A DNA stretch of 64,000 nucleotides from Hygrocybe punicea (lineage: Eukaryota > Basidiomycota > Agaricomycetes > Agaricales > Hygrophoraceae): contig OY744467.1 in the NCBI GenBank assembly GCA_963556145.1, forward strand, positions 186,001 to 250,000, read 5' to 3'. The notes beneath the pieces were generated by a model. That model did not search any database, was not told where the DNA came from, and saw only the letters and a program-made list of their open reading frames with translations. Shown in pieces: positions 27,261 through 52,736 of the stretch (its first letter is position 1; each line of letters opens with the position of its first letter). The position numbers and the translations under genes were made by a program.

Positions 27261-27332
27261 TGTTGGGCGTTGATGTGACGTGGCGCGGGCGTGTGTGTTG
27301 CGGTGCATTCCCGGCGTGACAGTGAGAAAGTC

Positions 27333-27397
27333 CTACATAAAAATAACAATATTAGTTAGCATAGTAATAGATAATAAGTTTTGAGAATTGTACTTAC
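27333..27397 (-). other. Spliceosomal intron, left central module of H5
   Basis: On the minus strand: AAG-GTAAGT donor at 27397, TGCTAAC branch site, TATGTAG acceptor, 65 nt. The upstream exon carries a short CTTCA/TGAAG inverted repeat close to the donor. Confidence 0.65.
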
Positions 27398-27399
27398 CT

Positions 27400-28200: not shown

Positions 28201-28307
28201 TTCAGCCACACTTCCATGTTTGGCAACTCGAACCCGTTTGGGAAATCGGCAACTGCCGGTTGGAGTTCGACAACACGAAACAGGTGCAGAAGAGCAACAA
28301 CACGAAA

Positions 28308-28388
28308 CGGGTGCAGAAGAGCACCCGAGGTAATTTCTTTTTTTAAAATCTTTTGTGAGTTGTATGCTAATGATTAGAATGATTGCAG
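28308..28388 (+). other. Pre-donor hairpin and intron, right central module of H5
   Basis: CGGGTGC (28308-28314) and GCACCCG (28321-28327) pair around AGAAGA, immediately before AG-GTAATTTC. The intron is 28330-28388, with a TGCTAATGA branch and TTGCAG acceptor. It is followed by ACGAC/GACGAG-rich exon-like sequence to 28910. Confidence 0.65.
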
Positions 28389-28399
28389 CTACACCCACG

Positions 28400-29215: not shown

Positions 29216-29277
29216 CTCACCTGCCTCCTTTACTATTTAATTATGTATTTTAATAATCATTAAATGTAGGATTATTC

Positions 29278-29713
29278 TATTTGGCTCCCCGGGGTGCATC
29301 AAACTTCCCGCGCACCCCTTGCCTTATAAGGTGATAGCTATGTAAAATAATTTTGACTAATCAATTTTAACTCAAGTTCTACTGGTGATAAAATGACTGA
29401 AAATTTATCTCTATGCAGTGTGAAGACTAAGACATGCAAAAACTAATTCTTACCAAATTCTGTTTAGTTGGTGTTTAGATATAGGCATCAATTCCAGATA
29501 AGTTCTTTATTTCTAAGCAACTATTCAATCAAAGCAAAGCATTATTTTTCTATGAACACCTAGAAGTGTAACCTTACTCATCTAAGTTTTTCTATGATTT
29601 TATCACCAACAGGACTTTAATTAAAACTGATTTATTGGATGTATTTCACTTAGCTACCACTATATAAGGTAAGGGGTGCGTGGGAAGTTAGGTGCACCCC
29701 GGGGTGCCAAATA
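29278..29713. mobile_element. TA-flanked MITE in H5
   Basis: 432 bp (29280-29711) with inverted termini TTTGGC(T/A)CCCCGGGGTGCA and further matching ~60 bp, flanked by TA on both sides. No ORF. Stowaway or Tc1/mariner type by its duplication. Confidence 0.7.
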
Positions 29714-30282
29714 GAACTACCCTTAAATGTATGTGTCTATTTTAAGTAATAGTTAGGTTATATATATTGATTCCAATAGAGAATTGAGTAAATAGAAAAG
29801 CACAATATGCCAAGTAGGGTAATTTCTGGTTTTACCATAGATTGCATGGGGGATAAGTAGCTCCTGTAATGGCTGATAGCTGATAGTAAAAGTAAGATAT
29901 TGTGCATTGTAAAAATAATAATTATGTAATTTTGCTATTCCCTGTGCTTTTAATAATTGCATGCAAATTATATTATATGGTACATTTATGTGGAGTACAG
30001 ATTGAAACATTTTGATTACTTTAAATATACGGCAGGTTCTGAATAAATATTGGCTTGAGCTGTTGTGAGCTCTGTCAATGTTGTCAACATTAAATACATA
30101 CAGGCAGAGTGGGATGTTGCTCAATCCGGTGGACTCACATGGGCCCATGTTGACCTGGTCAACCTAATCCTGCAGTGAGAGCTGGGCCAGGGTCAACCTT
30201 ATTCTGCAGCAAAAGCAGGGCCATATTAACCCAATGCTGGAGCAATAGCTGGACCCTCATGAACCCAATCCTTCCACATGGG

Positions 30283-31477
30283 TAAGGCATTGCACGGGTA
30301 CGGGTTTACCCGTGGTTATTCCAAAACGGGTAACAGCGGTTCGGGTACGGTGTTCAGGTTTGCACACCTTGTCCAAACCGTACCCGTTATCCGCGGGTGA
30401 CGGGTTTTCATGGGTCTGTCAACCCAAGCCCCCCAGGTGGGTTTTTTCTTTCCTATTTACTTTATTTTCAATAATAATTTCTTTACTTTAGCTAAACTAC
30501 AACTGTGACAAGCGCAAACAACAACAACAAGAAACTCACGGCAACGGCAACGACAACCGTTTTCAACAATGACACGGCAACAGGTGTGGGTGCCAGGGCA
30601 CCCCAGGTAAGCTTTATTCATCTATTCTACCAATTACTCAAATACTTTTAGGTTTTTTTCTCGCACCCTCGCGCCAAACGAACGCGAACATGGCAACAGC
30701 AACAAGCACATGGGACGCAGCCGAGAACGGGGACAACCAAGGCCGACCATGACAGCAAGAACGATAACGATGGGAATGATGACGACGAGGTAAACGAAGA
30801 CAAGAACGACGACGGTGAGAACGGGAAGATGACGACAAAGCGGGAACGGCAACTACGACAACGGGAAGACGACAACGGGGGAACAGGACAACGAGGACAA
30901 CAGAGACCGGGACAAGCACGACGACGGCAACGGGGACGACGATGGCAACGGGGACGACGATGGCAACGGGGATGACGATGGCAACGGGGATGACGACGAT
31001 GGCGACGATGAGGACCGTGAGCACGGGAACGGGGACGGGGGGCAACAGATGACAGAAACGAGGCGGACGCCCATGGGACATCCCCAGCACCATCCAACCT
31101 CGCGAAAACACGGAGCGCGTCAATTGACATGCCCCCGTTCTTTGCGAGGTAGTCAGCACGCGTGGATGCCCATGGAAAGTCCCCGGCCCCCATCCAACCT
31201 TGCAGAAACAGTTCCGCTTCGCGAACACGCCCCGGCCGCGTCAATTGGCGTGCGGACGGCCATGGAAAGTCCCCGGCCCCAATCCAACCTCGCAAAGACA
31301 GACAGGGCACGTCAATTGATGCGTCCCCGTTCTTTGTGAGGTTGTTAGGATGGGACACGGCGGGTACCCGCAAATAACGGGTACGGTGTGTACCCGTCAT
31401 CGGAAAGGGTACGGTTTCTGCGGGTACGGGTCCGGTGTCAGGAAATCTGACCCGTGGTATACCCGTGCAACGCCTTA
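30283..31477 (+). mobile_element. hAT-like non-autonomous element H3 in the right arm of H5
   Basis: 1195 bp with perfect 8-bp TSD CACATGGG (30275-30282 and 31478-31485). TIRs begin TAAGGC(A/G)TTGCACGGGTA. Subterminal CGGGTACGGGT repeats are typical of hAT elements. Inside, from left: a GGGTGC/GCACCC hairpin (30588-30602), an intron at 30607-30651 (GTAAGC donor, TTTTAG acceptor), GATGGCAACGGGGAC-type arrays (30880-31010), and three copies of a dyad around GTCAATTGAC (31097-31342). No transposase. Confidence 0.8.
31097..31342. promoter_or_regulatory. Dyad motif copies in H3
   Basis: Complete copies at 31097-31150 and 31287-31342, and a partial one at about 31217-31270. Each has ACCTCGC(A/G)AA, a central GTCAATTGA(C/T), and TTTG(C/T)GAGGT. 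The same ~54-bp arrangement occurs in H2 (46145-46198) and H1 (56885-56937). It could be a transposase or transcription-factor site. Confidence 0.6.
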
Positions 31478-31489
31478 CACATGGGTGGG

Positions 31490-32330
31490 TCTGGGATCAA
31501 TGCAATGCTACAGGACAGGCTGGACCCAAATCAACCTACCCTACAGCAAGTGCAGGACCTGGGTCAACAAAGTGCTGCAGCAATAGCTGGACCCCGGTCA
31601 ATGCAAGCCCCACAGCAAGTGCTGAACCCAGGTCAACCCAGTGCTGCAGCAAGTGCTGGACCAAGGTCAACCAAGTGCTGCAGCAATACCTGGACCCTGG
31701 TCAACCCAGTGCTGCAGCAAGAGCTGGACCCCAGTCAACCCAGTGCTGCAGGAACAGCTGGACCCTGGTCAACCTACCCTACAGCAAGTGCTGGGCCAGG
31801 ATCAACCCAGTGCTACAGAAATAGCTGCACCCAGGTCAACCCAATGCTGCAACGATAGCTGGACCCTGGTCAACCCAAGCCTGCAGGAAGTGCTGGTCCT
31901 GGGTCAACCTGACCCTGCAGCAATATCTGGACCTGGGTCAACCCAGTGCTGCAGCAACAGCTGGACCCCAGTCAACCCAAGCCTGCAGGAAGTGCTGGAC
32001 CCAGGTCAACCCAGTGCTGCAGCAATAGCTGGACCCTGGTCAACCCAGTGCTACAGCAATAGCTGGACCCAGGTCAACCTGGTGCTGCAGCAATAGCTGG
32101 ACCCTGGTCAACCCAAGCCTGCAGCAAGTCCTGGTCCCGGGTCAACCTGACCCTGCAGCAATAGCTGGACCCGAGTCAACCCAGTGCTGCAGCAATAGCT
32201 GAACCCTGGTCAACCCAGTGCTGCAGCAATAGCTGGACCCCAGCCACCCTACCTGGCAGGAAGTGCTGGGCCCAGGTCAACCCAGTGCTGCAGCCAGGTC
32301 AACCCACATTGCTTGAACAGCTGGACCTGG
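31490..32330. repeat. Right-arm minisatellite of H5
   Basis: Same ~34-bp unit family as the left arm, on the opposite strand (CTGGACCCAGGTCAACCCAG then TGCTGCAGCAATAG). About 24 units. Confidence 0.85.
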
Positions 32331-32589
32331 GTCAACCCAACCATCCCAGAATAGCTGTCCTGGGTTAACCTACCCCATGGCAGAGCTGACACCGGGTTGA
32401 CTCACCCAGCCACCCTTGACCAGCAAGAGCTGTATCTGGGTCAACCTACCACTCCACATTTCCCCAGCAAGAGCTGTCTTTTGGGTTAACCTACCCCCCC
32501 AGCAAGCAACTGCGCTATGTGTACCTACCTTTTGCAACTATATCTGCGATTGGGTTGACCAAAACGACTGGGTCTACTGTATCAAGGAC

Positions 32590-32642
32590 CTGAAAGAAAG
32601 AAAGAAAAAAAGAAAAGAGGAAAGAAAGAGGAAAAGAAGGAA
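32590..32642. repeat. Purine-rich GAAA tract
   Basis: GAAAGAAAGAAA-type low-complexity tract between the H5 right end and the TRIM B open frame. On the TRIM B sense strand it is a pyrimidine tract ending TTTCAG. Confidence 0.7.
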
Positions 32643-34597
32643 CTAATCTACTCCACTGGGGTCTAGCAAAGGAACTCCAAGACTGGGATCGAAGGGAATG
32701 GGAACTTGTCCAGGAAAAGATGGAAAAGAAACGGAGGGATGGGAAAAGTCAGGAGAAACATGATGGGCACAAGCCAGAGATCTCGATGAGTTTTGCATAG
32801 AGGCAGTGGAAAGGCGGTGGGGTTGCAGTCGATGAGCGGAACTGTCAAAATATGCAGGGTATGATCGGCACTGAGGTGGAAGTTGATATACGGGGTGTCT
32901 CGCACAAGATTGGTATGGGTGTGGTTGAATGCGGTGATTGCGGTAGCGAAGTGTGGACCACGGGTTTCGTGTCCTGAGGTGGATAGCGGCAGGGATGCTG
33001 TTCGGTCGCCACGTAGTGTTGCAGGCAGGGCGGGTGTTGCGCCAAGCAAGGTTTTGGTGGGGAATGTTGAATGCGGGGACGGCTTGAGTTTTCGGGGCAG
33101 GAATATTGGTGCAGCATGTTGCTGGCGCTGTCTCCACGGGCTCTGTTTGTGTAGACACGTTGGCATATCGTTTTGCAGGCCTAGATGGGTCTGCTTCGCG
33201 TGTGGTCGCGTGTTGGAACTGAGGTGCGTCCCCCGTACATGTATCCTCCTCCTTGCTTGCGTATGGTCGTGTTCCCTCACCTTGCCCTTTGATGTCTCGC
33301 CTCACGACGCCATCTGCTTTGTCCCGGTTCTCTCCTGCAAGGAACTCCGCGATCTCGGACGCCAGAGGCCACGACTGGCCATGCGGGTCTCCGCAATGCG
33401 TTTGGTGGATGGTGGAAGCGTGGTACGGTGTGGGCACGAGACGCTCGTGTTGAGGGTTTGGTTTTGGGTCAGGGTAGACGGGGATGGTGGCGCGAGACGG
33501 TGTAGGTGTGAGACGTTTGTGTCGGAGGGGTTTCGAGGCCAGTTTCGCGGTGCTGGGAGTGGGCATGCCGGTGTGCATTGAACACTCACGCTCATGCGAG
33601 CTTTTTGGGTTGGGGTGGGATATGGTTGCAGGCTGGGATGGAACGGGCGCGGGACAGGGCTCTGGGGTTGGCCTTGCATTGGGGTTGGGTCTACGCGCCG
33701 GGTGTTCGTGCTCACGGCCGCTTTTGGCCCTGGGGTTGGGGTATTTCGAAGGGAGCTGGCGGCTGCTGCTCCAGGGTGCTTGGGGTTGGGGGTGGCAAGA
33801 GCTGTGGGTGCTGGGCATTCGCGTCCGTGCTCGGTTTGGAGGTGGTTGGCGTTGTGGGACGGCGTGGTGGACGCGTTTGACGTGGGCTGTGGCTCGTCTT
33901 GGCACACCAGCATTGGCGTCTGTGGTTTCCGGGTCAATGGGGGCGGGGCCGTACGTTGGGGTTGCGGCTGAGGTGCTGGTGGTGCTTCGCGGTGCTTCAC
34001 GTTCATTGGTGACGTGGCGGCAGCAGCTGGGCTGGACTGGGGTTCGTTTGGGCACACGGGTGCTCGCGTTGGCCGTTCCTGGGTCGACGTGGGTGTGGTT
34101 GGATGCTGGGGCCATGGTCCGAGTATTGAAGGCGAAGGCTGCAGCGTTGGGTGCAGCCGTGACGTGGCAGTCGTGTTGGGCGTGATGGGCACGCGTGCGG
34201 ACAGCGTTGGGGCCTGCGAGATGGTAGACGGGGTTGCCGTTGACGTTGTGGGGACTTGGGGCGTGGTTGCGAGGGTGGGGGATGCAAATGTGGCGGTTGG
34301 GTTTGGGGCGCGTTCTGACGTGTTTTGCAGCGAGGGTGGGGCCATTTGGGTGGGCAATAATGACGTGGCGTGCTCGGGCGCGAACGTCGACGTTTTTGGT
34401 GGAGGTGGGCGTGCTGTGGTGTGCTGGGTTGAATCTTGGGGTCCGTGCCTCGTTTTTGGCTGGCCGCAGTTGGCGGTAAGGTGGGTCGACGAGGCTGTTG
34501 AATGTTCACGGTCGGAGGCACTGGGTGGTGTTGGGATGGCGTTGGCGGGCACCGGGGCAGTGAGTGTCGTCATTGTGTTCATTTGGGTCCACGTCAC
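32643..34597 (-). other. Pro/Thr/Ala-rich open frames inside TRIM B
   Basis: Two overlapping minus-strand frames are open: 34115-32643 (490 codons, ending DPSGVD) and 34597-33302 (431 codons). Both are low-complexity and GC-rich with a repeated APVCPNEPQSS-type unit. Because several frames stay open, coding is unproven. The repeat has counterparts in TRIMs A, C and D. Confidence 0.3.
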
Positions 34598-34925
34598 TGT
34601 GGGCTGGGCTGTTGGTGGCGAGATTGTTGGTTCTCTTTTTGTGTTGGTTTTCCACCGCGATTTTTCCTTCTTCGCTCATTCTTTTTGTTTCTTTTTCATA
34701 GTCATTTGTGTAGGTTGAGAAAATGAAAATGTTTGATGCTCGGAAAATCATTCAGTGCTTGGAAAATCACTTGGTGCTCGGGGAACTGCTCGGTGCGCTG
34801 TGCTCTGTACACTGCTCGGTACTCGTAAAATCGCTGGGGTGCTGAAAATTCGCTGGAAATCGCAGGAAGTTGCTAAAAATCGCTGAAGATGGAGGCTGTG
34901 TTCGAATCCGCTCTCATCACCACGT

Positions 34926-35080
34926 TGGAGTGGTATGGAGGTACCGCTCTGAGGGCTAGCTGGAGAGTCTCGCAGAAGAGCTGGCGAGGAAGGCTGGATT
35001 CGGACTGACTACTGACAGGGATCTATCTACAACGAACCATGGGAGCCTCGTCACGTGACTAGGCACTTGCTACTACTCCA
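34926..35080 (-). repeat. 5' LTR of TRIM B (sense is minus)
   Basis: 155 bp, four CpG-type mismatches to the other LTR. CCACGTTGG..., i.e. the primer-binding-like GTGGTGATGAGAG, adjoins on the left. Confidence 0.85.
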
Positions 35081-36704
35081 CCGCTTCCGCACATGGTGCA
35101 CCCGACGGACTCTCCAGACGTCCCCGCGCTGCAGAAGACCCCAAGGAGATCGACGACTCCAATGATTGGCTCGACCACTCCTATGGTTTCTTCATGGAAG
35201 TCGTTAATTACCGACCCGTCCCTATGCCCTTTAAACCGATTAGCATATGTGGCCATTGTCGTACCACTGCTGACCGTCTCCAAGAATTACCAACCGCCCT
35301 CGTCTATGCGAATCAAGAAACCGTCTCTGACATACCGCGATCCGATAAAGCCCGCGCGGCCGATGCTCATCTGTCCCTTGTCGAGGCTTGGTTGCGAAAT
35401 CCATCCTGACCCGCTGACCTCACGGATGAACAATACCGTTTGTTCCTGCGATATGCCCTCGAATTCTTCCTCACCGATAACAAGTTATGGCGTAAAGACC
35501 GTCACGGGAAACACAAACTCGTCATACCACCTGACCGCCGGCTTCAGTTACTCAAAGACGCTCACGACTCTCTCGGCCACAAAGGCATATTCTCCGTCCA
35601 CGCCTGCCTACTCGATCGTTTCTGGTGGCCGCACCTCGACCACGACGTTAAGTGGTACGTCCAGTCTTGTCATCAGTGTCAAGTACGTCAAATGCGTTAT
35701 CACCACATACCCCTGACCATCGCTACACCGGCCTCGCTATTCAGCATATGTCAACACGATGTTTATGCCATGATCTGGCAGCTTCCGGTACATTGTCCAA
35801 GCCCATTGCTCCCTCTCCACTTATCCCGAGTTCCGAATGCTATGCTGCGAGACCGGCTCGACCATCGGCACATTCCTATTTGAAGACATCTTATGCCATT
35901 GGGGTGCCCTCGAAGAAATCGTTACCGACAACGGCAAGCCGTTCGTAGAAGCGCTCAACTATCTCGCCTCCCGCTACGGTATCCGGCACATCCGCATTTC
36001 GCCCTACAACTCACAAGTGAATGGGCCTGTTGAACGTCGCCACCTAGATGTCCAGGAGGCCATCATGAAAAGTTGTGATGGAGACGAAAAGAAATGGCAT
36101 ACCATAACCCACTCCGTATTTTGGGCCAAACGGGTCACCACACACAAGAACCTCAGATACTCCTCCTACTACATCACACACGGAGTAGAGCCGCTTTTTC
36201 CATTCGACTTTGCCGAAGCCACATACATGGTTCCGACACAAGATACGATGTGCACAACCGACCTCATAGTCATCCGTGCCCGCCAACTTCATAAACGAGA
36301 AGCCGACCTCAATCGGGTCAAAGAAAAGCTTACCAAGTCTCGGCTCGCGTCCACCCGACAATTTGAAGAAAAATATGCCAACACGATCAAAACCTTTGAT
36401 TTCGAACCCGGCAACCTCGTCCTCGTCCGGAATTCCCGTATCGAGATGTCCCTCGATCGAAAAGCCAAGCCGCGATACTTCGGACCCATGATTGTAGTCA
36501 GGAAAACTCTCAGCGGATCGTATATACTAGCCAAACTCGACGGTGCAGTCTCTAAATCCTGATATGCTGCTTTCCGAGTCGTACCCTACTATGCCTGTTC
36601 AAAGATATCGATACCCTTGGACGATTTTCTACAATACCCCAATGCCGATGATACCGACTCAGGCGATCTCGATGATCCGACGTACCCGCTCTCTATAGAC
36701 CCCT
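35081..36704 (+). pseudogene. pol: G2 integrase
   Basis: It continues pol after TRIM B: GAPDGLSRRP, TGA at 35407-35409 (expected CGA), then the HHCC zinc domain (HDSLGHKGIF ... WYVQSCHQCQ, about 35570-35690). The core domain loses its frame near 35750, where the first catalytic Asp would be, and resumes at about 35840 with IVTDNGKPF (second Asp) and NGPVERRH (Glu). The C-terminal domain has KPRYFGPMIVVRKTLSGSY, the GPY/F-type module. A TGA at 36560-36562 (expected CGA) precedes AFRVVPYYACS and SIDP, where G1 inserted. Confidence 0.75.
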
Positions 36705-37282
36705 TGTTACGCCAAACCCCGATTCCCACTCCGCATCCTCACCCTCATCACACGACGCTATTGTTGACTGGGTATGTAACATCATCGAAGACCAACGGAG
36801 AAATCATCCAGAACGTTACCAACGTGTTCATCATCCGATCCCCGCCGACACACACGATACCTCACCTATTGTTCGTGCACTTAATAACACCGCACAACAC
36901 AATCACCATATTCGATGTCTTCTGTCACCGGATCTTCAACAAAGCCGTTGGCCACCACGATGGCACCCCAAAACGCGGACAACACGACGAGCATTCATGC
37001 GACGGAGCTTATTCGAACGTCGACCATCACAAAGCATTCATTTGCCGATGTCGTACATCTTGGTAAAGAAGCCTGCTCTAAAGTCGTTCGATTAGTATAT
37101 AACTATGGCCATTCGTAGTTAGTATCCCCAAGTTTAGTCTGGCTACACTTCCCCAGATCGCTACCTACCCAGAACTCTCTCCCCCTCTTCTCTACTTTTG
37201 TTTGTACTTGCTTCTGTTTATTTCATCCTCACGTTTGGTTTGTTGTTGCTGGAGTCCGCTCTTACAACAGCGATCCGTAACA
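36705..37282 (+). repeat. 5' LTR of G1
   Basis: 578 bp, TGTTACGCC...CGATCCGTAACA. It is followed by TAAGACTAAAC, shared with the LARD-like element. Confidence 0.9.
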
Positions 37283-37532
37283 TAAGACTAAACTTCTTTT
37301 ACTCTCTCAACAACGAATCTGGAACAACCTGGACCCACGAAGATACCGAACACCTGATTCTGACCTTGACGACGATTATTATCTTGCACCAGAAACGTCA
37401 GATTCTTCTGACGACGCCGAATTCGACCACTACGTCGCAACACAAGTCACCTTCCAACCTCCGCCTCTCCCCCCGTCATCACTTTCTTCTACAACAACTC
37501 CTCCTCACTATCAACCTTGACGAATACAAAGG

Positions 37533-38549
37533 ATGTCTGGCGAAACATCCGAAGAAACCCATGACTCAACCACAACTACATCACCCACAGCCCCGTCATC
37601 TCCCAAATCACATATTGCTCCGCCAGCTAAGTACGATGGGAACAAGGAGGGATTCAAAACATTCCTTCGAGGCGCAGTCATTTACCTCCGCGCCAACGAA
37701 ACCGCTTTCCCCGATGATGAAAAAAAGATCCTTTTTATCATCTCGTACCTGCATGGAGGACTCGCCGGAAGATGGGCAGATGAGTTCGTCGACGTTGCCA
37801 TGGGACACTCCCCCATCAACTTCAGATCCCTGGAAGACTTCATTACGGAATTTAGATGACATTTCGAGAAACCCGACCAGAAGAAAGACGCGTTAACAAA
37901 ATTGAATGAGTTACGCCAAGGGAAAATGACCGCAGACGAATTCTGGATTGAATTCGATACTCTTCGACGGATGTCTGGACTCGGCGAAATCCTGAATGAC
38001 AGCTATCTCATTCAGCTCATCGAACTCCATATGAACAAGCCATTGATCGACCAGATATATACGGGCATGACTATTCCGACAACCGTACAAGAATGGCGAG
38101 ATCAAACAACCAAACTCGACCAGCAATGGCGACGTCGACAGGATCAGATACGATCCATGAATACGAATACCCCGAAACAACGATATAATTCCAATACGGC
38201 GACAACTACGACAACAACCTCTCGACCACAAGTTACCCCTTCTCGTCCCATATCAGAATCTGTCCCGATGGACGTCGACACACGACGAACACAACCCCGA
38301 CAACAAACGTTTACTCGTTTGACAGACGAACAACGGTTGGATTTCATGAAGAAGGGGATTTGTTTCAAATGTCGGCAACCCGGACATATCTCGCGTAATT
38401 GTCCAGAACAACAGGGACGACAACAGATTTGTTCTATGGAAACTGTTCAACAAACCCCGAAACAACAACAAGACGATGGCAAAGACGCCCGGATTGCCGC
38501 ATTGATGGATGAATTGGCGGCGATGAAGTTGAAGCAAGAGGGTTTTTAA
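37533..38549 (+). pseudogene. gag: G1 gag (one TGA)
   Basis: 338 codons from the ATG at 37533. The Retrotrans_gag-type domain spans about residues 30-170 (PAKYDGNKEGFKTFLRGA ... EDFITEFR-stop-HFEKPDQKK ... TVQEWRDQTTKLDQQWR). A linker rich in Thr/Gln follows, then one CX2CX4HX4C knuckle (CFKCRQPGHISRNC, near 38370-38410), then a short C-terminal helix. The TGA at 37857-37859 sits where Arg is expected and would cut gag at residue 108. Gag forms the virus-like particle and binds the element RNA. Confidence 0.88.
38540..38549 (+). promoter_or_regulatory. Programmed -1 frameshift site between G1 gag and pol
   Basis: The heptamer G-GGT-TTT (38540-38546) fits X-XXY-YYZ and is followed directly by the gag stop TAA (38547-38549). 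The pol frame is exactly -1 relative to gag and is open from here except for TGA codons. No strong downstream pseudoknot was worked out. Confidence 0.65.
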
Positions 38550-41500
38550 GAAAGCGACGTGATGCGCAGGAGGCCACGATCGCACGACTCAAGAAAGATG
38601 TACACGTATGTAAACAATTCAATGGTGTATTTTCAAAACTCAAAGACCTCCGCAATGACCTGAGACAACAACCGAAACAACAACCAGAAGTAAAACCAAA
38701 ACAGGAAAGTAACACGTGGTGAGATACCCATGTTACGGACGAAGAAGACAAGACAACGAAGAAGAAAACAACGATTGAATCCGAATTCAATGCCATGGAA
38801 ACAATTGTGGCCATCCGGTCAACCACAATGGGTTATGCCCTCGACCTCTTATGTGATTATGACATACACGGACAATGGACAGAGAAGATTTCGCCGGGTT
38901 TGGTTCTCTCTCTCAATCGTCGATCAATTGATGATGCAGTTCAATGGCTGGTACACAATATGCCCCAGGACTCACCACAAGAACCACGAACTCTAGAACC
39001 AATACGAGCCATAACACAGAAAGATTCCGAACTTCATATGGCGTTATTGGTTCATGGTTTCGTCTCGGTCACCCAAGATGGTCGTCAATATCCCATGACC
39101 GGTTTGATCGATTGTGGCTGCACGATCTGTGCAATTGATATCGGCTACGTCAAAGCGCACAACATTCCCACGAAGCCATACTTAAATCCGTTTAATTCGT
39201 ATATGAGCGATGGGACACAACCAAAAACAGGACAGATCACTGAATATTGCGAGTTGCAAATGTGGCTTGGGGATCATCAAGAATTACTCCGTTTTGCAGT
39301 AACAACATTGGCGAAAATGGATATCTTCCTTGGATACGATTGGCTCAAAAAACATAACCCAGAAATTGATTGGCGTGAAAACGAGATCAAGTTCTCACGA
39401 TGTCTTTCGGGTTGTGGCAAGCCATCAACAATACGGTCAACCGAATTCAACACTGTGGTCTGGGAACGGCCTCTTTGGTTCGATCAAGTGATGGAAGAAA
39501 CGATGGACCCAGCACACTTTCGTTCATTCATGACCAAGTCGACAGAACTCGCAATCAAAGCACAGGAACAACAAAAAGAGAAATCGTTCGAAGAACTGGT
39601 CCCTGAAACGTATCATGAATATCGCGATGTCTTCGAACCCTCTGGGTTTGATGAGTTACCGGCACGGAAACCTTGGGATCACGCAATCACCCTGAAACCG
39701 GATGCACCGGACCATCACGACTGCAAGTTATACCTGTTATCACCAATTGAAAAACAAGACCTCGATAAATTTCTCGATGAGAATCTGAAAACAGGACGAA
39801 TTCGACCATCACAATCACCATATGCTTCTCCTTTCTTTTTCGTATCAAAGAAGGATGCTGCAGAACGACAACCAATACAGGATTACCGATGGTTGAATTC
39901 ATGGACCGTTGATGACAAGTATCCATTACCGTTGATCAATGACATCATCAAGCAACTTGCTGAAGCAAAATTCTTCACAAAACTCGATGTTCGATGGGGT
40001 TTCAATAATGTTCGGATCAAAGAAGGCGATGAACACAAAGCTGCCTTCCTAACCCCGAAAGGTCTTTTTGAACCGACCGTGATGTTCTTCGGGTTGAAGA
40101 ACTCACCACCAACGTTTCAACGACTGATGAATCATGTTTTTCATTATGAAATCCGTGAAGGCTGGCTTTTGGTGTACATGGATGACATCCTGATCTTCTC
40201 GAAATCATTGGAAGAAAACCAACAACGCACGAAACAAGTCCTGAAGATTTTCCGGGAAAATAACTTATTCCTGAAACCCAAGAAATGTACATTCGATAAA
40301 CCAAAAGTCGATTATCTCGGCCTTATCGTCGGTGAAGGACAAGTCCAAATGGATCCTGTCAAGACCAACGCGATCACCGATTGGCCAGTCCCTACAAATC
40401 TTACTGAACTACAACGGTTCATTGGTTTTTTGAATTTTTATCGTCGTTTCGTCAAAAACTTTTCACGGATTGCTGCTCCTCTTCATAGACTTACAGGAAA
40501 AGCAAAATGGGATTGGACAGAAGAGCAACAGAATGCATTCGATCGATTGAAGACAATCATCACAACCGATCCCATCCTTGTTCTGCCCACACCTGACAAG
40601 AAATTCATCATCGAATGTGATGCTTCTGATTATGCCATAGGTGCCATCTTATCACAAGAACAATCCGATGGCCTCTTCCGACCCGTCGCATACATGTCGA
40701 CAACAATGACACCAGCAGAACGAAATTATCAAATTTTCGACAAGGAATTACTCGCAATCATACGAAGCTTCAAAGAATGGCGTCACTTCCTTCTTGGTGC
40801 GAAAGAACAAATCGACGTGTTCACCGATCATCGTAACTTGGAATATTATCGTAAACCACAAGATCTCACACGACGACAAGCACGATGGATCGCATTCCTA
40901 CAGGATTACAATTTTTGTCTTCTATACAGAAAAGGATCACAAAACAAGAAAGCCGATCTTCTTTATCGGCGTGTTGATCATAAACCAACAGAAATGGATA
41001 ATAAAGGTTTGATTGGACTACCTGATTCTCTTTTTATCGTACCAGAACAATCCATTCGGCGAATCCTCCATTCATCTCTTTCCCGCGACAATATCATTTC
41101 CCTACACCACGATAACCCAACAGCTGGACATCCCGGTCGTGATAAAACAATTGAGTTGATATCGTGAACATCGACATGGCCGACTATCCGTGATGACATC
41201 GAACGGTATATTACCGGTTGTGCCGAATGCCAACGAAACAAACCACGTCGTGGGAAACAATTGGGACAGCTTTTCCCTCATGAAGTACCACCGTATAATT
41301 GGCATACGATTTCCGTCGACATGATTGGTCCCTTACCGGAATCGCACGGCTTTGACGCCATTTTGGTCATTGTCGACAAATGATCGAAACATCCAATCTT
41401 TGTCGCCACCAATACGACTCTGACATCAGAAGGTTGGGCCAGATTATTCCACGATCACGTTTTCAAACGCTTCGGCATGCCACATTTCATCATATCTGAT

Positions 41501-42832
41501 CGTGGTTCTGTTTTCGTTTCGCGTTTCATTACCGAATTATATTCCCTGATTGGCATAAAAGGACGACCAACAACAGCATATCATCCTCGTGCTGATGGAC
41601 AGATGGAACGAATGAATCAAGAACTCGAAATCTTTCTTCGTTTCTTTACCAATTACCAACAAGACGATTGGCATGAATGGCTTGCCCTTGCAGAATTCGC
41701 ATTGGCCAATCGCGAATCCTCCGCAATCAAGGCTTCCCCTTTCTTTGCCACACAAGGACAACATCCATGGACCGGCCTCGACCTCGACACGCATACCCCT
41801 ATCGTCAATGAAGCCGTCAGTGATTTCATCACACGAATGAAGACCATACAACAAAAGATTGGGGAAATCGCAGATGTCACGAAACAGACGATGAAGGATA
41901 AGTATGACAGCCATGTCAAAAAGATCATCTTTTCTCCTGGTGATAAAGTCTGGCTAAATGGAAAGAATTTGACCACAGATCGACCAAGCAAAAAATTGGA
42001 CAATCAGAAATTCGGTCCATTCGTCGTCAGTAAACGGATCGGTTCGTCATCGTACAAGCTCAAATTGCCGAAGACCTGGAAAATCTTTCCCGTATTCAAT
42101 GTCGCTCTCCTTTCCCCATTTGTCCCTCCTTCCTCCCCTATTCAACAAAAATACCATCTTCGACCTCCCCCCGAAATCATCGACAATGATGACCACTACG
42201 AAATAGAACATATCCTCGATTCCCGTATTCGTCGAAATAAATTATATTACTTAGTTCATTGGCTTGATTATCCCCGAGATGAAGATTCCTGGATCCCCGC
42301 ATCCGAAACCTCATACTGCCAGGATCTCGTCGATGACTTTCATAAATTACATCCCAAAGCTCCATCTTCATCATCTCTCCGTTCACTTTTTACTCTTCCC
42401 CCTTCCATTATCCTCCCTTTTTCCTCTTCTTCCATTTTACTTGCCATATATCCAAAAAACGCCACCCTCATCGCCAACCATACAAAGAACCACGAATTCC
42501 GAAAATACGTCTTTCCCCCTAATGTTACTCACGCCTATCTTTACGAAACTGCCCCCGTCGACGCCATTACCGCCATCATCGAAATCGCCCCCCCTATCAC
42601 TGCCCCTGCCTTAATTGCCGACGTCAGTGGCGTTGGCAATTCCGACTTCAATACCCGTGTTAAAACCTGTCCGTACGCTTTCCCGATCTTACATTATTAT
42701 CACCTTCCATCACCTATCCCCTCCGCCGCCCTTTCGCATGATTATGACATTTCTACTCCTCATCGTTTTTCGTTGCTTCCTTCTTCTTTCACACGTGATC
42801 ACCCCGTGAATCCCGATCACCTCGTTTATTAG
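38546..42832 (+). pseudogene. pol: G1 pol: protease, RT, RNase H, integrase, chromodomain (three TGA)
   Basis: Frame -1 from the slippery site. The retropepsin has GLIDCGCT (DCG where DSG/DTG is usual) and FLGYDWLKKHNP. RT has FFTKLDVRWGFNNVRI (first Asp) and YMDD near 40180. RNase H has ECDASDYAIGAIL, DKELLAI and FTDHRNL. Integrase has the HHCC finger (HHDNPTAGH ... GCAECQ), SVDMIGPLP, ISDRGSVF and GQMERMNQ for D,D,E, and KFGPFVVSKRIGSSSY (GPY/F). The end carries a chromodomain (YEIEHILDSRIRRN, YYLVHWLDYPRDEDSW), which targets integration to marked chromatin. TGA codons at 38720, 41165 and 41381 replace expected Arg codons. Otherwise intact. Confidence 0.9.
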
Positions 42833-42912
42833 TTTTACCAGCCCTAATCTTTCTTGCCTATATATGCTTCTTCCGTTTCTTTTCTTTCGTTTGCCCCTTT
42901 TTCCCCTCTTCC

Positions 42913-43340
42913 ATGTCGTCTCCTTCTTCCCCTCCCTCTGTTTCTGATCATTACATCTACGACTCCGACGGTTTCCCTCATTGTTGGTACGAGTTACCCC
43001 CGACTCCACGTTGCCTTTACGAACACAATGTCCCCCGTCGCCGTCGTCGTTTTTGTGACCAGTCTCTTCGCTTTGAATTCCCCCCTTCTTCCTTCACTGG
43101 TTCCTTCTCCACTGATGATGTTCTTCTTCCCCTCGGCCTCGACTCTCGTCTTTTCCCCGCATGGCTCCCGCCTTCCTCGTTCTTCGCTTGTGCCCACAAG
43201 TCCATGGTCCCACGGTTGGTCCCCGTTTGGTTCTCCGATGCTCCCGTCAACCTTAGCGAGGAGTTCTGCGATTGCTGGGAGACTGCCATGTTGTTGCTCC
43301 CACCGGTTAATCGGGACGATTCCCCTTGTTCCGGGGGTTT
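42913..43340 (+). CDS. Possible third ORF of G1 between pol and the 3' LTR
   Basis: An ATG at 42913 opens a frame of about 143 codons before the LTR (it then continues into it). The start MSSPSSPPSVSDHYIYDSDG and the body (PHCWYELPPTPRCLYEHN, FEFPPSSFTGSFSTDDVLLP, LSEEFCDCWETAMLL) look protein-like rather than low-complexity. No family is recognised. It may be an accessory protein or leftover flank. The last residues before the LTR (VNRDDSPCSGG) come from the conserved pre-LTR segment shared with the LARD-like element. Confidence 0.35.
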
Positions 43341-43918
43341 TGTTACGCCAAACCCCGATTCCCACTCTGCATCCTCACCCTCATCACACGACGCTATTGT
43401 TGACTGGGTACGTAACATCATCGAAGACCAACGGAGAAATCATCCAGAACGTTACCAACGTGTTCATCATCCGATCCCCGCCGACACACACGATACCTCA
43501 CCTATTGTTCGTGCACTTAATAACACCGCACAACACAATCACCGTATTCGATGTCTTCTGTCACTGGATCTTCAACAAAGCCGTTGGCCACCACGATGGC
43601 ACCCCAAAACGCGGACAACACGACGAGCATTCATGTGACGGAGCTTATTCGAACGTCGACCATCACAAAGCATTCATTTGCCGATGTCGTACATCTTGGT
43701 AAAGAAGCCTGCCCTAAAGTCGTTCGATTAGTATATAACTATGGCCATTCGTAGTTAGTATCCCCAAGTTTAGTATGGCTACACTTCCCCAGATCGCTAC
43801 CTACCCAGAACTCTCTCCCCCTCTTCTCTACTTTTGTTTGTACTTGCTTCTGTTTATTTCATCCTCACGTTTGGTTTGTTGTTGCCGGAGTCCGCTCTTA
43901 CGACAGCGATCCATAACA
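43341..43918 (+). repeat. 3' LTR of G1
   Basis: 578 bp, preceded by CCGGGGGTTT and followed by TSD CCCCT. Confidence 0.9.
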
Positions 43919-44676: not shown

Positions 44677-46144
44677 CTGTAAAGGAAACGGTCCGGTAAA
44701 CTTTTACGATGCTCAATGGGTACGAATAGGTACTCGACAATAAGGACTTACCGTCGTCCCGTCCACGTCCTCGATTGCCACACCCGGCATCTCCTCATCT
44801 CCTAGATTGGCTGGTGGCTCTGGTGCCAGTTCGCCGGGATCTTCTTCGAATCCGACTGCGACTTCGCCCTCCAGCACCGGTATGAGGTCCTGCTCACCCG
44901 TGGTCGATGCGTTGGTGATATTTGTTCCCACCTGCCGGTCCTCGCTGACCTGTCGCCGATATTCGATCCCATCCCTCTCAACCCGGTCCACCTCCTGAGT
45001 CCACTGCTGCCCTTCTTTCTCTATCCTGAGCTTCTCCCGCCTCTCCTCTGCAGCCGCTCCCCGTTTCTCCACCTCTGCTCACGCCTGTGCCTCCGCCAAC
45101 CATCTTGCCTCCTCTTCCCACGCAGCTGCCTCCGCATCTGCCCGCCGCTTTTCTTCTTCCTCCTCCTGTCTAGTCCACTCAGTCGTCTCCGTCAGCCACT
45201 CCTCCAACGTGTCTGCATACGCCTGCCGATCTTTCCACAAAGGAAGCGTCAGTATACTTTTGCCCGCGTCTTTGAGCTTGGTCATGATCCCGTTATATAC
45301 CCGCTAGCGGACAATGTTAGTCGTACAGGATCTCACTTCTGGATAGTGTTTGAAGGTCCAGTCCCTAGGACCGGGAAAAAACCAGGACCTAACCGGACCA
45401 GACCGGAAAAAAACCGGACCTCGGTTGCGGTTCATCCTTTTTTCTCATTAAAAAACCGGTTGCGGTTAACTTAACTTACATTACTAAGGACGGGGTTGCA
45501 ACCAGTTTTAACCGGTTGCAACTGAACTTGGCAGTCTATGCGAGCTACAAAGTAATATTTATTTATTAAACTAATTAGACTACGACTTAATATAAAATTG
45601 GGAGATGAGGCTGGGTTTATATAGGCCGTGTGGTGTGCTCACGGACCATGTCAACAAGTTTGGCCACAAATGCTGGCCAAACAAGAACACTAACGAGTAC
45701 CTATTTCCCACGTCGACCAAGACCGCAGCAAAACGACCACGACGGCCACAAGGAAGCGAGAAAAGGCAGTGGGGGGTGGTGCGCCCACTCCTGCTGCAGA
45801 AAAAGTATGTTTTTCATTTTCATTTTTCATTTATTGTTCTATGCTAATTCCTGACCAACATGATGACCCACGCCAACGGAGCCACCAATGCGCCCGTCAA
45901 CACACTGCCCACGTGTCCGACATGACCACCACTGCCACCATCAATGGGACCACCAACGCTGCCATCAACGGGACCGCAACACCCCCACCAACACGCCAAC
46001 ACCCACCACTGGGGGCCGTCAACGCAGCAGGTCCGCCAACGCCGTCATCAACAGGGCCGCAATGCCCCCACCACTGGGGGCTGTCAACACAACGGGACCA
46101 CCAACGCCATCATCAATGGGGCCGCAACGCCCACACCCCAGTCC

Positions 46145-46198
46145 ACCTCGCATACACACGGCGATGCGTCAATTGACGTGTGTCCAGTTTTGCGAGGT
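46145..46198. promoter_or_regulatory. 54-bp dyad motif in H2
   Basis: ACCTCGC, then CGTCAATTGACG (a perfect 12-bp palindrome, 46167-46178), then TGCGAGGT. Same layout as in H3 and H1. Confidence 0.65.
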
Positions 46199-46350
46199 TG
46201 AAGAGAGAGTGTGGGTGTGCAGAAAGACTCACCAATGTCACCAATGGGGTTGCCAATGGCCCAACGTGCCCCCAAAACCATCAGTTATTAATTATTAAGA
46301 ATGATTTAGCTATTTAGATAATTAGCGTGATTTTCCCTGGTTGGAACCGG

Positions 46351-46507
46351 TGTAGTAGGGACTAGGGGTCCCTACTGGTGTCTCAGTGATCTCGGATGGT
46401 GTGACAAGCTGAAGTCTCATAAGCTATCTACACAAAAGGTAATCCTACGGAACATGGGAACAATCACGTGATCTACTAGTAGTAGTGGGGCACTACCCAC
46501 TACTACA
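46351..46507 (-). repeat. TRIM D outer LTR, left
   Basis: 157 bp, TGTAGTAGGG...CCCACTACTACA, with ATCACGTGAT box. Confidence 0.85.
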
Positions 46508-46550
46508 TGTACCCCCCTCAAAAAAAACTGTGGCGTCCTCGCCACTGAGG
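46508..46550 (-). promoter_or_regulatory. TRIM D 3' hairpin and polypurine tract
   Basis: GTGGCG (46530-46535) and CGCCAC (46540-46545) pair around TCCT (AGGA in sense). The adjoining TGTACCCCCCTCAAAAAAAA is the complement of the purine tract. Confidence 0.65.
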
Positions 46551-47767
46551 AGTCAAAGACCAACAACACTCACAAAATCTCCCAAACTCCCACTCAAAAC
46601 TCCAACTCCGTCGAGGACTTATGAAATGCTGCCGACAGGTATGCCCCCCGGTGGACGCCACCACCAGCTCAAGATACCATTTGTCGACCAAATCGCCTGT
46701 GCTCAGAGCGTAACTCACCAAGGGAGGTGGAAAACTCGTAACGTGTTGGCATTGGCCTGGGGTACTAGATACATCGAACAGTGAACAGGGACTGCAAAAA
46801 CCAATGGCATGCGGTAGTGTAGGCAAAATGAAGGGCGATGGGTAATGAAAACTAGAGTACTAGAAAACTGGGTGTCGACTAGGTATGACATGGCGGGACT
46901 TTGGGGGCTCGAAAATGGCGGGGGTGGCTCGTGTATAGTGGCAAAGGGATACTAAATACTTTGGGTCACGGAACGTGGTTGCAGGGAGCTGGTCGAGTGC
47001 GTTCGTGTGAGTGGATAGTGGAGAACCGTGGGTCGATTGATGATGACGCGGCGGGTCCGTGGGGTGGCTATAAAGGCTGGCGACCACTCGTTTGGGATGG
47101 CGCGAGTGAACAGGGACGTCCAGTGCGTCGAACAAGGGCCTGTGGGGTCGGTTGTGTGGGCTAGAGGGCTCGGTTACATGAAAACGGGGGACGATGGCAT
47201 GGTGATGTGGCAGTGGCCATAGGGCTGGCGACCATTCGTTTGGGACGAAGAATGGGAGTGCGGGGCACTGGTACGCTGGATGAGGGCATGGAGGGTGTAA
47301 CGCGTATGTGTGGGGCTTCAACTGATGCGTATGGGGTGCTAACGAAGATGACGTGGCGTGACACGGGGGCTCTAAAACGGTGGGGTCAGCTCGCGTGGGG
47401 TGTACGTGGGGGTACGTGGAGCTTCTAGGACGTGTGTCATGAGTGCTAAGGGCGCATCGAGCGTGTGCGTAGAGCTTGAGAACTGTAAAAACGCGGTGTA
47501 AAATGAAGCAATGCTGAAAAAAGCATGTTGGCCGTAGAAATGCGCGTGGTTAGTGCAACACAGCTTAGCGAGGGTCTTGGGAATGTTGATCGTAGGCGTG
47601 GGGGTTCTTATGAGTGCGTCTTGGTGGTGAACAATGAAAAAAATCCAAGTTGAAGACGATGACGTGGCGATGCGCGGGTTGGCCTTTTTGCCTCGAAAAA
47701 GGGGCCGTGGCGGTGTATGGTAAACGTGAAGGCTCATGGGTTATCTAACAAAAATGGGGGTGGCCGT

Positions 47768-47924
47768 TGTAGTAGTGGGTAGTGCCCCACTACTACCAGT
47801 AGATCACGTGATAGTTCCCACGTTCCGTAGGATTACCTTTTGTGTAGATAGCTTATGAGACTTCAGCTTGTCACACCATCCGAGATCACTGAGACACCAG
47901 TAGGGACCCCTAGTCCCTACTACA
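47768..47924 (+). repeat. TRIM D inner, inverted LTR
   Basis: 157 bp, the reverse complement of the outer LTRs apart from a few sites. It is followed by the primer-binding-like TGGTGATGAGAGTG at 47927. Confidence 0.85.
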
Positions 47925-48097
47925 CCTGGTGATGAGAGTGTGATTCGTCTCAGCCTTTCTTTTCTCACCATTCTCCAGCTTTTTTGAGCCCCTTCTGAGC
48001 TTCTCTACTGGTTTTCTCACGCTTACAGCTTTTTCACGCGGTCTCACCACCCAGCTGCAGAGCAGCCCCCGTTTTTTGTCCATGGCCAGCCACACGG

Positions 48098-48254
48098 TGT
48101 AGTAGGGACTAGGGGTCCCTACTGGTGTCTCAGTGATCTCGGATGGTGTGACAAGCTGAAGTCTCATAAGCTATCTACACAAAAGGTAATCCTATGGAAC
48201 GTGGGAACAATCACGTGATCTACTAGTAGTAGTGGGGCACTACCCACTACTACA
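48098..48254 (-). repeat. TRIM D outer LTR, right
   Basis: 157 bp, differing from the left outer LTR mainly at CpG-type sites (for example CCTATGGAACGTGG versus CCTACGGAACATGG). Confidence 0.85.
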
Positions 48255-48796
48255 CCGGTTAAGACCAGTTGGGTCCACCCAAAATCAAAAAATGAACTGG
48301 TCCTCATAGGTCCGGTTCAGGTTTTTGACAAATTATGCAATGAGTTAACTGGTCCGGTTCCGGTTAATGTCCAAAAATGGCAAAAAACCGGACTGGACCG
48401 GACTTTAAAACACTACTTCCGGATGGAAAACTCACCATGGCTTTTCTACGGTCGATCAACCACTGCCGCGCCGCGCCTTCCTCGCCCTCGACCATCCCCA
48501 CAAACCCGTCGTTGTGAAACTCGGCGATTTGGTCTACCGCGTCCTGGTAGTCCACCCGGGTCTTGGCATTGATGCTTTTAACGAAAGCGGGATAGGCATC
48601 GTAGTCGTCCATGGTGAGAGTCGAGGTGGAGTGTTGAAACGAAGTTAGGAAAGCCGATCAATGACGACGTGTTTTTTTTATGTTTTTCTCACTTTGTTGT
48701 TGTTTGGTCGCTCACGTGGTTAGCCACCTTCGCGCCCCACGTTTGAAGATCTCGTACTATTGACCACGGATGGTCTCTATTAGAAGACCCAAGGAG

Positions 48797-50734: not shown

Positions 50735-50892
50735 TGTAGTAGTTGTGCCTGGTCAGTCACGTGATCAGGTTCCCATGGTTTGACCTAGTTAGTAGCCTTC
50801 CAGATGTAGTAGTCAGTCCATCCTTCCTATCCAGTCGACCTTTCCCTCGAGTCCTGCGTGAGCCCCCGGAGTGGTACCTCGGTACCACTCCA
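50735..50892 (+). repeat. 5' LTR of TRIM C
   Basis: 158 bp, with GTCACGTGATC box. Confidence 0.85.
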
Positions 50893-52551
50893 ACGTGGTG
50901 ATGAGAGTGTTCTTCGACCCACGCTTCTCTTTTTCTCATGGTTTTCCCACTTCTTACAATTTTTCTCGCGAGACAACTTTTTCCGGCCTCACCACCCCCC
51001 AAATTTTCACTTTCCCTAGACCCAGCTATGTCCACACGACCCCCCGCAACTTCGTTCGACGTTCCGGAGCCCCGCGTTCCCCATCAGGATCCCACATGGC
51101 CCGCTACTGCGAGTTTTGGACAACCCAACGAAAATCGCATCGCCGCCGCGCGGACCCCGTTTTTTTCATGCACCCCGGACCCAAAATGCACGCGTTCGAC
51201 TCCCCGCACCCTTGGCTCATCTGCCAGAACCCCCCGTCGCGCCTCGTCGTCTCAAACGAACCGCCCCGCACCTTTTGGTCGCCCCATGGATCTGCCACGT
51301 CACCATTGTTAGACCCCCCGTTTCTCGTCACCCCCACCCTTACACGGACCCATTCGACTCCCCGCACACTCGTTCCGCTAGCCAGAACCCCCCGTTCCCA
51401 TTCGTCGCCCCAAACGAGCCCCGCCGCTCTATGGACACCCCAGCGAACTCCCACGTCAGCATTCCGCGACACCGTCTCCCGTGGATGCCCACCCCAACCC
51501 ACGCTCATCCAACCCCACGGACCCTCGTTCGACGTACTGGAGCTCCGCGCTCGCCTACGCCACCTCGAATTCACGGTCGCAGACCTTTTTGGCCACACCA
51601 CGGATCCGTCGCGCCCCCCCGTTGGACCCCCGTTCTTTCGTGTACCCCAGCATCACACGGACCCATTCGACCTCCCGTGCCCTCGTTCCACCGGCCAGGA
51701 CCTCCCGTCCCCCTCCATTGCGCCAAACGAGCCCCCGCCGTCGATTCCAGACACCCGGGCCACGCACCACGTCACCATCGCGCGGCCCCATTCTGCCAAC
51801 ATACCCAGCCCCGGATCAACTCACGAAGCTCGCGGCCCACCCGTTCACCATCCCGGAGCACCCCACCTCGATCCAATACCACCGTGCCCACCGTTCCCAG
51901 ACCCCCACCGCGTTCCGCCACGTCACCATCTCTCGGCCGGATTCTTGCACCATACCCGGCTCCTCGAGCCCTCGTTCAGCTCCCCGCAACCTCGTTCTCG
52001 ACCCTGGCGACTTCCCCGACCCGTAGGGACCCAAACGAGTCACCGCCGCGACCACTTAGCACCCCAGCGCTAGTCCCCTCATATCGAGAATCCCCGATGC
52101 CACCGCATGGCCCAATGCACCCGTATGCTTTCCCTTTCCCCCGTTTACACCGTACCTTGTCCCGTCCTATCCCCTTTCCCCACCCTCGACATTTATTGGA
52201 TATTCAACCTATCTACGAACCATCACTGCTCGACAGCACCGTACCTATTTACTTTCGCACGAACCACCCAGTCTATTTTCGGATCACAAGAACTCACACC
52301 CTGGGCTACAAGAACTTATGGTTTTGAACGTTTTTATCCTACCCTGCGATGTGAGTCCCAGAGGCATTCGAGGATGGAGGAGCAGAGCAGAGTTACAGTT
52401 TGGTCATCTACCACCCCCAACGATCTTGGAGGACGATACGGTCCCGCCTCACGTGTAAGGCCCGGGGCATCGTGAGGGACTGGGAGTCGTGACTGGAGAG
52501 TTTTTTTCTTGGTCAGTTTTGTTTTGCTTTTTGTTTTCTTTTAGTAGCGGT

Positions 52552-52589
52552 ATGGTGACGAGGACGTCACCATGAGGAGGAGGGGCACT
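52552..52589 (+). promoter_or_regulatory. TRIM C 3' hairpin and polypurine tract
   Basis: Perfect 9-bp stem ATGGTGACG/CGTCACCAT, loop AGGA, then GAGGAGGAGGGGCACT. Confidence 0.7.
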
Positions 52590-52736
52590 TGTAGTAGTTG
52601 TGCCTGGTCAGTCACGTGATCAGGTTCCCATGGTTTGACCTAGTTAGTAGCCTTCCAGATGTAGTAGTCAGTCCATCCTTCCTATCCAGTCGACCTTTCC
52701 CTCGAGTCCTGCGTGAGCCCCCGGAGTGGTACTCCA
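52590..52736 (+). repeat. 3' LTR of TRIM C (11-bp deletion)
   Basis: 147 bp. The end reads GAGTGGTACTCCA instead of GAGTGGTACCTCGGTACCAC then TCCA, consistent with slippage between short direct repeats. Confidence 0.8.

What the first reader, a model, noticed from the sequence alone, without database searches (positions are those of the whole stretch)
46351..48254. TRIM D carries an inverted third LTR bounded by an inverted 4-bp duplication: a footprint of self-integration
Seen: outer LTRs are direct repeats with TSD CCGG. A third LTR plus the 5' internal start (47768-48093) is inverted, with CCGT just before it and ACGG just after it. An intramolecular integration that inverts part of a cDNA is expected to leave its 4-bp target duplication in inverted orientation at exactly these two junctions. 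Inferred: a self-integrated product was later inserted in the genome with LTRs at both ends. The primer-binding-like site is now antisense to the outer LTRs, so this copy should not be able to replicate by the normal route, which makes its presence as a clean TSD-flanked insertion puzzling.
Basis: partly seen in the sequence, partly recalled or inferred. Interest (0 to 1): 0.78.

Follow-up and report, generated by a model that had tools for sequence, protein, structure and literature searches.

The report
Self-integrated mini-retrotransposon fossil in fungal chromosome
A tiny jumping gene of a fungus appears to have once inserted its DNA copy into itself, and the resulting scrambled circle, normally a dead end, was probably caught in a chromosome by recombination with an ordinary long terminal repeat, leaving an unusually complete scar.

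Summary
Window 46351-48254 has two direct 157-bp LTRs with a CCGG target duplication, and a third, inverted LTR carrying the PBS-side internal piece, bounded by CCGT and ACGG. In 16 of 16 related copies displayed (of 20 fetched by place), the two internal halves are contiguous and share this site once (CCGT in 12, CpG-decay forms in 4). That is what integrase-made, inverting autointegration at one 4-bp target leaves. The site fits the family's target: 36 of 46 listed target duplications have CG at the centre in at least one copy. The PBS matches tRNA-Leu(AAG) at 20 of 21 positions and is antisense to the outer LTRs. Each inner junction was found only here in the 92-Mb genome (25-26-base patterns, up to 3 mismatches). 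Autointegration gives a circle with one outer-type LTR; the extra LTR and the CCGG are most simply explained by recombination of that circle with a resident LTR. This step is inferred. One tension: the inverted LTR carries two variants absent from both outer LTRs, which needs gene conversion, a resident full-length element, or unequal cDNA LTRs. Autointegration is known from extrachromosomal DNA; its chromosomal capture is the unusual part.

The parts
46347..46350 (.). Outer target-site duplication, left copy (CCGG)
   Evidence: Identical CCGG at 48255-48258; 12 of 12 paralogous empty sites read have the 4 bp once (CCGG in 10, CCAG in 2)
46351..46507 (-). Left outer LTR (157 bp); in the element's own sense (minus strand) the 3' LTR, next to the polypurine tract
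46512..46519 (-). Polypurine tract GAGGGGGG, next to the left LTR
   Evidence: same place in 17 of 17 paired elements listed (GAGGGGGG in 15, AAGGGGGG in 2)
46508..47763 (-). Internal segment A, orientation normal relative to the outer LTRs
   Evidence: same orientation relative to the LTRs in the relatives
47764..47767 (.). Self-integration target site, first copy (CCGT)
   Evidence: single-copy and contiguous with the other half in 16 of 16 relatives displayed
47768..47924 (+). Inverted third LTR (157 bp), the former 5' LTR
47927..47947 (+). Primer-binding site, 20 of 21 complementary to the 3' end of tRNA-Leu(AAG) with an added CCA, first 14 nt perfect; antisense to the outer LTRs
   Evidence: pairing counted by me
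47925..48093 (+). Inverted PBS-side internal segment X
   Evidence: 98% identical over 173 bp (4-bp site included) to the normally oriented segment at C34:4534227-4534399
48094..48097 (.). Self-integration target site, second copy, inverted (ACGG)
48098..48254 (-). Right outer LTR (157 bp)
48255..48258 (.). Outer target-site duplication, right copy (CCGG)

Best explanation
A linear cDNA of a small non-autonomous LTR retrotransposon (TRIM-like; window order LTR-A-CCGT-X-LTR) was attacked at CCGT by its own two LTR ends. The inverting form of autointegration gave a circle LTR-A-CCGT-(inverted LTR)-(inverted X)-ACGG, which carries one LTR in the outer orientation. Homologous recombination between that LTR and an LTR already in the chromosome with CCGG on both sides (a solo LTR, or a full-length copy that later lost its own interior) inserted the circle, so that the unit ended with an LTR at each end and an undamaged CCGG duplication. 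Shown by sequence: the junctions, the single-copy site in relatives, the clean outer duplication, the antisense PBS, no second copy of the junctions found. Inferred: integrase as the agent (strong), the circle (from the geometry), recombination into a resident LTR (most economical).
For: Both inner junctions lie exactly at LTR termini and carry one 4-bp site in inverted orientation. Related copies have the two halves contiguous with the site once, 16 of 16 displayed. The length equals the family's target duplication, and its CG centre fits the family: of 46 listed duplication pairs, 36 have CG at the centre in at least one copy and 7 more have TG or CA in both, against a CpG frequency of 5.2% in the window. 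The outer insertion is clean: 16 of 19 paralogous sites in the lists have a 4-base gap between the flank matches, and 12 of those, fetched, carry the 4 bp once. Recombination partners exist: 30 of the 71 LTR copies in the census look solo by their 10-12-base flanks. No second copy of either junction was found. The PBS is antisense to the outer LTRs, so a route without reverse transcription of the rearranged form is attractive. A held paper names this inverted 2-LTR circle as one expected outcome of Ty autointegration (PMC4751563, passages).
Against: The inverted LTR has T at LTR position 112 and G at 128, both outer LTRs have A and A. The combination T112-A113-G128 is otherwise seen, among the LTRs aligned, only in both LTRs of the copy at C1:609888-611596, so it looks inherited. 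With identical cDNA LTRs, one crossover with a solo LTR should leave at least one of these variants in an outer LTR. So gene conversion, a resident full-length element (left LTR wholly resident, crossover in A, right LTR chimeric), or a cDNA with unequal LTRs is needed as well. No other isolate and no reads could be examined. The same paper found almost no autointegration junctions among yeast Ty circles (abstract: no signs; one mosaic read consistent with scenario IV of its figure, an autointegration form), so such circles may be rare.
Confidence: 0.8

Rival explanations
1. The self-integrated form became a linear DNA with LTRs at both ends outside the chromosome (for example by recombination of the circle with another cDNA) and was then inserted by integrase at CCGG.
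For: Clean 4-bp duplication of the family type; the outer LTRs differ by only 2 of 157, both transitions at CpG sites. It would also allow the outer LTRs to differ from the inverted one.
Against: Needs two rare steps before integration; no second copy of the junctions was found. Nothing in the sequence clearly separates it from recombination with a chromosomal LTR.
Confidence: 0.1
2. Nested insertion: a second copy inserted in reverse at CCGT, then a deletion removed its other half together with X of the first copy.
For: Reverse nested insertion probably occurred elsewhere in the family: C41:1713517-1717384 reads, in my interpretation, as a reverse insertion at ACGT inside the right LTR of a first copy, followed by loss of the palindrome centre.
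Against: A nested insertion leaves a direct, not inverted, 4-bp repeat. The deletion would have to end by chance both at the exact element position used as target and at the first base of the right LTR; only GG is shared there (sequence).
Confidence: 0.04
3. Replication-based template switching or a two-break inversion produced the inverted block without integrase.
For: The block is an inversion plus an LTR; up to 3 bp (CGG) of possible microhomology at the right junction with the CCGG flank (my reading).
Against: No microhomology seen at the left junction, both breaks exactly at LTR termini, and a 4-bp overlap equal to the family's target duplication with its CG centre.
Confidence: 0.03
4. 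Assembly error.
For: No reads could be examined; the family is repeated in the genome.
Against: An inverted 4-bp duplication at exact LTR ends, and variants that distinguish all three LTRs, are not what a collapse or misjoin makes; the contig is 6.8 Mb long.
Confidence: 0.03

Closest known systems
Autointegration products of Ty elements and retroviruses: inverted 2-LTR circles
   Same: Geometry of the inversion: both LTR ends joined to an internal target (described in PMC4751563, passages; the inverted target duplication is recalled general knowledge)
   Different: Those are extrachromosomal; here the product sits in a chromosome with a third LTR and an outer target duplication
eccDNA of Magnaporthe oryzae LTR elements formed by autointegration (MAGGY, MGRL3, GYMAG1)
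   Same: Autointegration inferred for fungal LTR elements (PMC9694575, passages)
   Different: Modelled there as single-LTR circles of various lengths, seen as extrachromosomal DNA
TRIM elements (terminal-repeat retrotransposons in miniature)
   Same: Short direct LTRs, PBS, PPT, no protein domain found, solo LTRs
   Different: 14 of 17 paired copies are 1.5-2.0 kb long (internal 1.2-1.7 kb), 3 longer; classical TRIMs are smaller (recalled); PBS fits tRNA-Leu(AAG)
cDNA-chromosome recombination of Ty1 (recalled, no paper seen)
   Same: DNA made by reverse transcription enters the chromosome through LTR homology
   Different: Usual products are normally ordered elements, tandem or converted

Membership tests
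Inverting autointegration product | LTR ends joined to an internal site of the same element | tested here: met
   47767/47768 and 48097/48098 join internal sequence to LTR termini
Inverting autointegration product | Target site duplicated in inverted orientation, length as in normal insertions | tested here: met
   CCGT / ACGG, 4 bp; family duplications are 4 bp
Inverting autointegration product | Both halves contiguous in the uninverted element | tested here: met
   16 of 16 relatives displayed, of 20 fetched by place
Inverting autointegration product | Both LTRs of the cDNA identical at birth | tested here: inconclusive
   inverted and outer LTRs differ at 112 and 128 by variants that look inherited; later recombination could have changed the outer ones
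Inverting autointegration product | Circular intermediate | not testable with these tools
   no extrachromosomal DNA data
TRIM-like non-autonomous LTR retrotransposon | Short direct LTRs TG...CA with a target duplication | tested here: met
   157-bp LTRs, TGTAGTAG...CTACTACA; 4-bp duplications
TRIM-like non-autonomous LTR retrotransposon | PBS and PPT | tested here: met
   tRNA-Leu(AAG) PBS 20 of 21; GAGGGGGG tract
TRIM-like non-autonomous LTR retrotransposon | No gag-pol | tested here: met
   6 open frames of 80 aa or more overlap 46351-48254, the longest 153 aa; 0 of 6 match Pfam at E 0.001. Relatives were not tested.
TRIM-like non-autonomous LTR retrotransposon | Very small size (limit recalled, not from a call) | tested here: inconclusive
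   14 of 17 paired copies 1.5-2.0 kb, 3 of 2.5-5.5 kb
Recombination of a circle with a resident LTR | Pre-existing LTR at the site | not testable with these tools
   no second isolate held (no relatives here)

The most novel reading that the evidence does not exclude
Autointegration, often called retrotransposon suicide, is not always a dead end: scrambled circles can return to the chromosome. In the boldest form, the rearranged unit itself became a linear substrate that integrase inserted at CCGG, so that self-integrated DNA can still be mobile.
Probability: 0.1. Interest if true: 0.72.

Novelty: new variant of a known kind. Interest (0 to 1): 0.52.

Why it matters
Autointegration is known from circles and laboratory reactions. 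A chromosomal copy that keeps both target-site scars suggests that such circles can be retained and inherited. It gives a simple signature (an inverted LTR block bounded by an inverted target duplication of family length, with the outer duplication intact) that can be counted in any genome to measure how often autointegration happens in nature. It may also explain some three-LTR elements that would otherwise be called nested or chimeric.

Tried and rejected
That C41:1713517-1717384 (head-to-head arms joined at the PBS) is a second reverse-transcription oddity: by eye, its two flanks match the two sides of a repeat like that at window 46135-46205, and a 42-bp LTR remnant starting at ACGT follows the inverted copy, so reverse nested insertion plus loss of the palindrome centre explains it. 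That the differences among the three LTRs are all private mutations: 98 (T in the right LTR) and 104 (A in the left) are transitions at CpG, but 112 T with 128 G of the inverted LTR is shared with the C1:609888-611596 copy. Further copies of the junctions: none found. Of the 46 hits of a tRNA-3'-end pattern I fetched 6: five (L074-L078) have CCAGG following in the genome and look like the PBS region of other elements; one (L079, longer as L092) is a tRNA-Leu(AAG) gene with an intron. ARAGORN without introns found none in L074-L079. ARAGORN's own fold of L092 ends one base later than the usual 7-bp acceptor stem that I used for the PBS comparison, and the CCA is assumed to be added to the tRNA. 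The LTR table held misoriented duplicates of some loci; the census was redone, and only one search's variant comparison is used, which duplicates do not alter.

Full report
The claimed structure is present. Two direct 157-bp LTRs (46351-46507, 48098-48254) are flanked by CCGG on both sides. A third LTR (47768-47924) is inverted, preceded by CCGT and followed, after 169 bp, by ACGG. The left and right LTRs differ at 2 of 157 positions; the inverted one differs from either at 3.

What the normal element looks like. A search of the window's own genome (92.2 Mb, 42 contigs) gave 171 matches, with only 40 of 108 candidates scored, so this is a lower bound. I fetched 20 loci by place. In 17 of them I could pair two LTRs; there the order in window orientation is LTR, A, X, LTR, with X opposite to the window's X. 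Of the other three, L055 is a composite, L056 has no LTR match at the threshold used, and L062 has one LTR. On the minus strand a normal copy reads 5' LTR, CC, PBS, X, A, PPT, 3' LTR. The PPT is GAGGGGGG in 15 of 17 and AAGGGGGG in 2; the PBS TGGTGATGAGAGTGTGATTCG occurs at its place in the 17 with one-base variants in some (the printed PBS of L060 is shifted because only 135 bp of its LTRs matched, and is cut off before its end). The PBS fits the 3' end of a tRNA-Leu(AAG) gene that ARAGORN finds when introns are allowed: 14 nt perfect from the CCA end and 20 of 21 in all (the pairing count is mine, with CCA added and a 7-bp acceptor stem). Six open frames of 80 aa or more overlap the window element, the longest 153 aa, and none of the six matches Pfam at E 0.001.

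The key test. If the block arose by inverting self-integration at one 4-bp target, the halves beside CCGT and ACGG must be contiguous in normal copies and share the 4 bp once. In the 16 of 20 fetched loci where I displayed this place they do: CCGT in 12, CCAT in 3, CTGT in 1, the last two being decay forms of a CpG. L052, L056, L057 and L062 were not displayed. BLAST matches of the two halves overlap by exactly 4 bases there, for example in L043, L045, L050, L053 and L054.

The target preference. I listed 46 target-duplication pairs: 16 from full or composite elements and 30 from solo LTRs. The window's own CCGG is not among them; L045, L056, L060 and L062 were left out; the two C6 entries have identical flanks and are probably one insertion duplicated, so 45 may be independent; L061's pair looks out of register. 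CG is central in both copies in 17, in one copy in 19, TG or CA in both in 7, none of these in 3. CpG makes up 5.2% of the dinucleotides of the window. CCGT/ACGG at the inner junctions and CCGG at the outer ends both fit, a hint that the same kind of integrase made all of them.

The outer insertion is clean. The flanks belong to another repeat, whose copies without the element exist. Of 19 places found with both flanks, 16 have exactly 4 bases between the two flank matches; 3 do not (two overlap, one has 104 bases). I fetched 12 of those 16: the flanks are joined by the 4 bp once, CCGG in 10 and CCAG in 2.

One event. The left inner junction matches 3 places within 3 mismatches: itself and two ordinary LTR outer ends beside their target duplications (C3:2812688, C8:1946682). 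The right one matches only itself (the nature of the other two). A census of 71 LTR copies (56 from fetched loci, 15 from 14-base pieces at their ends; 4 partial) has 20 beside a PPT, 16 beside a PBS, 11 solo with identical 4-bp flanks and 20 others. One of the 20 others is the window's right outer LTR; the other 19 have flanks that look genomic, mostly with 4-bp ends that differ by CpG decay. By eye, in these 10-12-base flanks, I saw no other LTR end joined to an internal site; at C41:1717343/1717344 an LTR end meets an LTR remnant. The census covers what the searches listed, not every copy in the genome.

Mechanism. A linear cDNA LTR-A-t-X-LTR that attacks its own t with both ends in the inverting way gives a circle LTR-A-t-invLTR-invX-inv t. 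A held paper states that Ty autointegration gives either an inverted 2-LTR circle or two truncated circles (PMC4751563, passages). Read from its outer-type LTR, this circle is the window unit minus one LTR. Adding one LTR, with CCGG on both sides, is what recombination with a chromosomal LTR does. It is inferred.

Results against the simplest version. The inverted LTR has T112 and G128; both outer LTRs have A and A. T112-A113-G128 also occurs in both LTRs of the copy at C1:609888-611596; G128 alone is more widespread, and T112 also occurs at C8:581065. All three window LTRs share T31 and A39, seen otherwise only in the copy at C33:4951278-4952986 among the LTRs aligned; A46 is shared also with the copy at C6:802928-804439. 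A circle with identical LTRs crossing once with a solo LTR should have left T112 or G128 in an outer LTR. Recombination with a resident full-length copy (crossover in A, then loss of the old interior through the right LTRs), gene conversion, or a cDNA with unequal LTRs would each explain it; the data do not choose. [quoted passage not shown]

Host and literature. The host is therefore probably an agaricomycete fungus (inference). Circles attributed to autointegration are reported for LTR elements of the fungus Magnaporthe oryzae (PMC9694575, passages). I searched the held library for this kind of footprint or for such TRIMs in fungi. No listed title or abstract start announced a chromosomal footprint of inverting autointegration, but I saw passages of only four papers, the lists were cut, and the Ty1 paper cited there is not held. 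So I cannot say that it is unreported.

Verdict: confirmed observation, interpretation supported, with capture by LTR recombination as the likeliest last step. This is known chemistry in an unusual, well-preserved chromosomal form.

Noticed in passing
L055:518-4385 (C41:1713517-1717384): Head-to-head pair of family copies joined at their PBS ends without LTRs between; reads as reverse nested insertion at ACGT inside an LTR followed by loss of the palindrome centre.
   Followed up: partly
L056 (C33:733400-739300): Three units of a divergent family member in tandem at a period of 1583 bp, with the same match identities in each unit.
   Followed up: no
window 16328-18166, 24518-35080, 50735-52732: Other short-LTR elements with different LTRs; the first two named show TGGTGATGAGAG or its complement beside an LTR, and 4-bp duplications with central CG (CCGC, CCGC, ACGG) can be read at the ends of the three.
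   Followed up: partly
C6:7409501-7409658 and C6:7414517-7414674: Two solo LTRs in opposite orientation, 5 kb apart, with identical 12-base flanks on both sides: probably an inverted duplication of one insertion.
   Followed up: no
window 36704-43918: Gypsy-type element (RT, RNase H, Tf2-1-like SH3 and Chromo domains in two open frames) between 579-bp repeats 98% identical.
   Followed up: partly
hits, e.g. L074, L075: 22 hits share one identical 20-base tRNA-3'-end-like stretch; in the two fetched, CCA follows in the genome. They may be PBS regions of another abundant LTR family.
   Followed up: no
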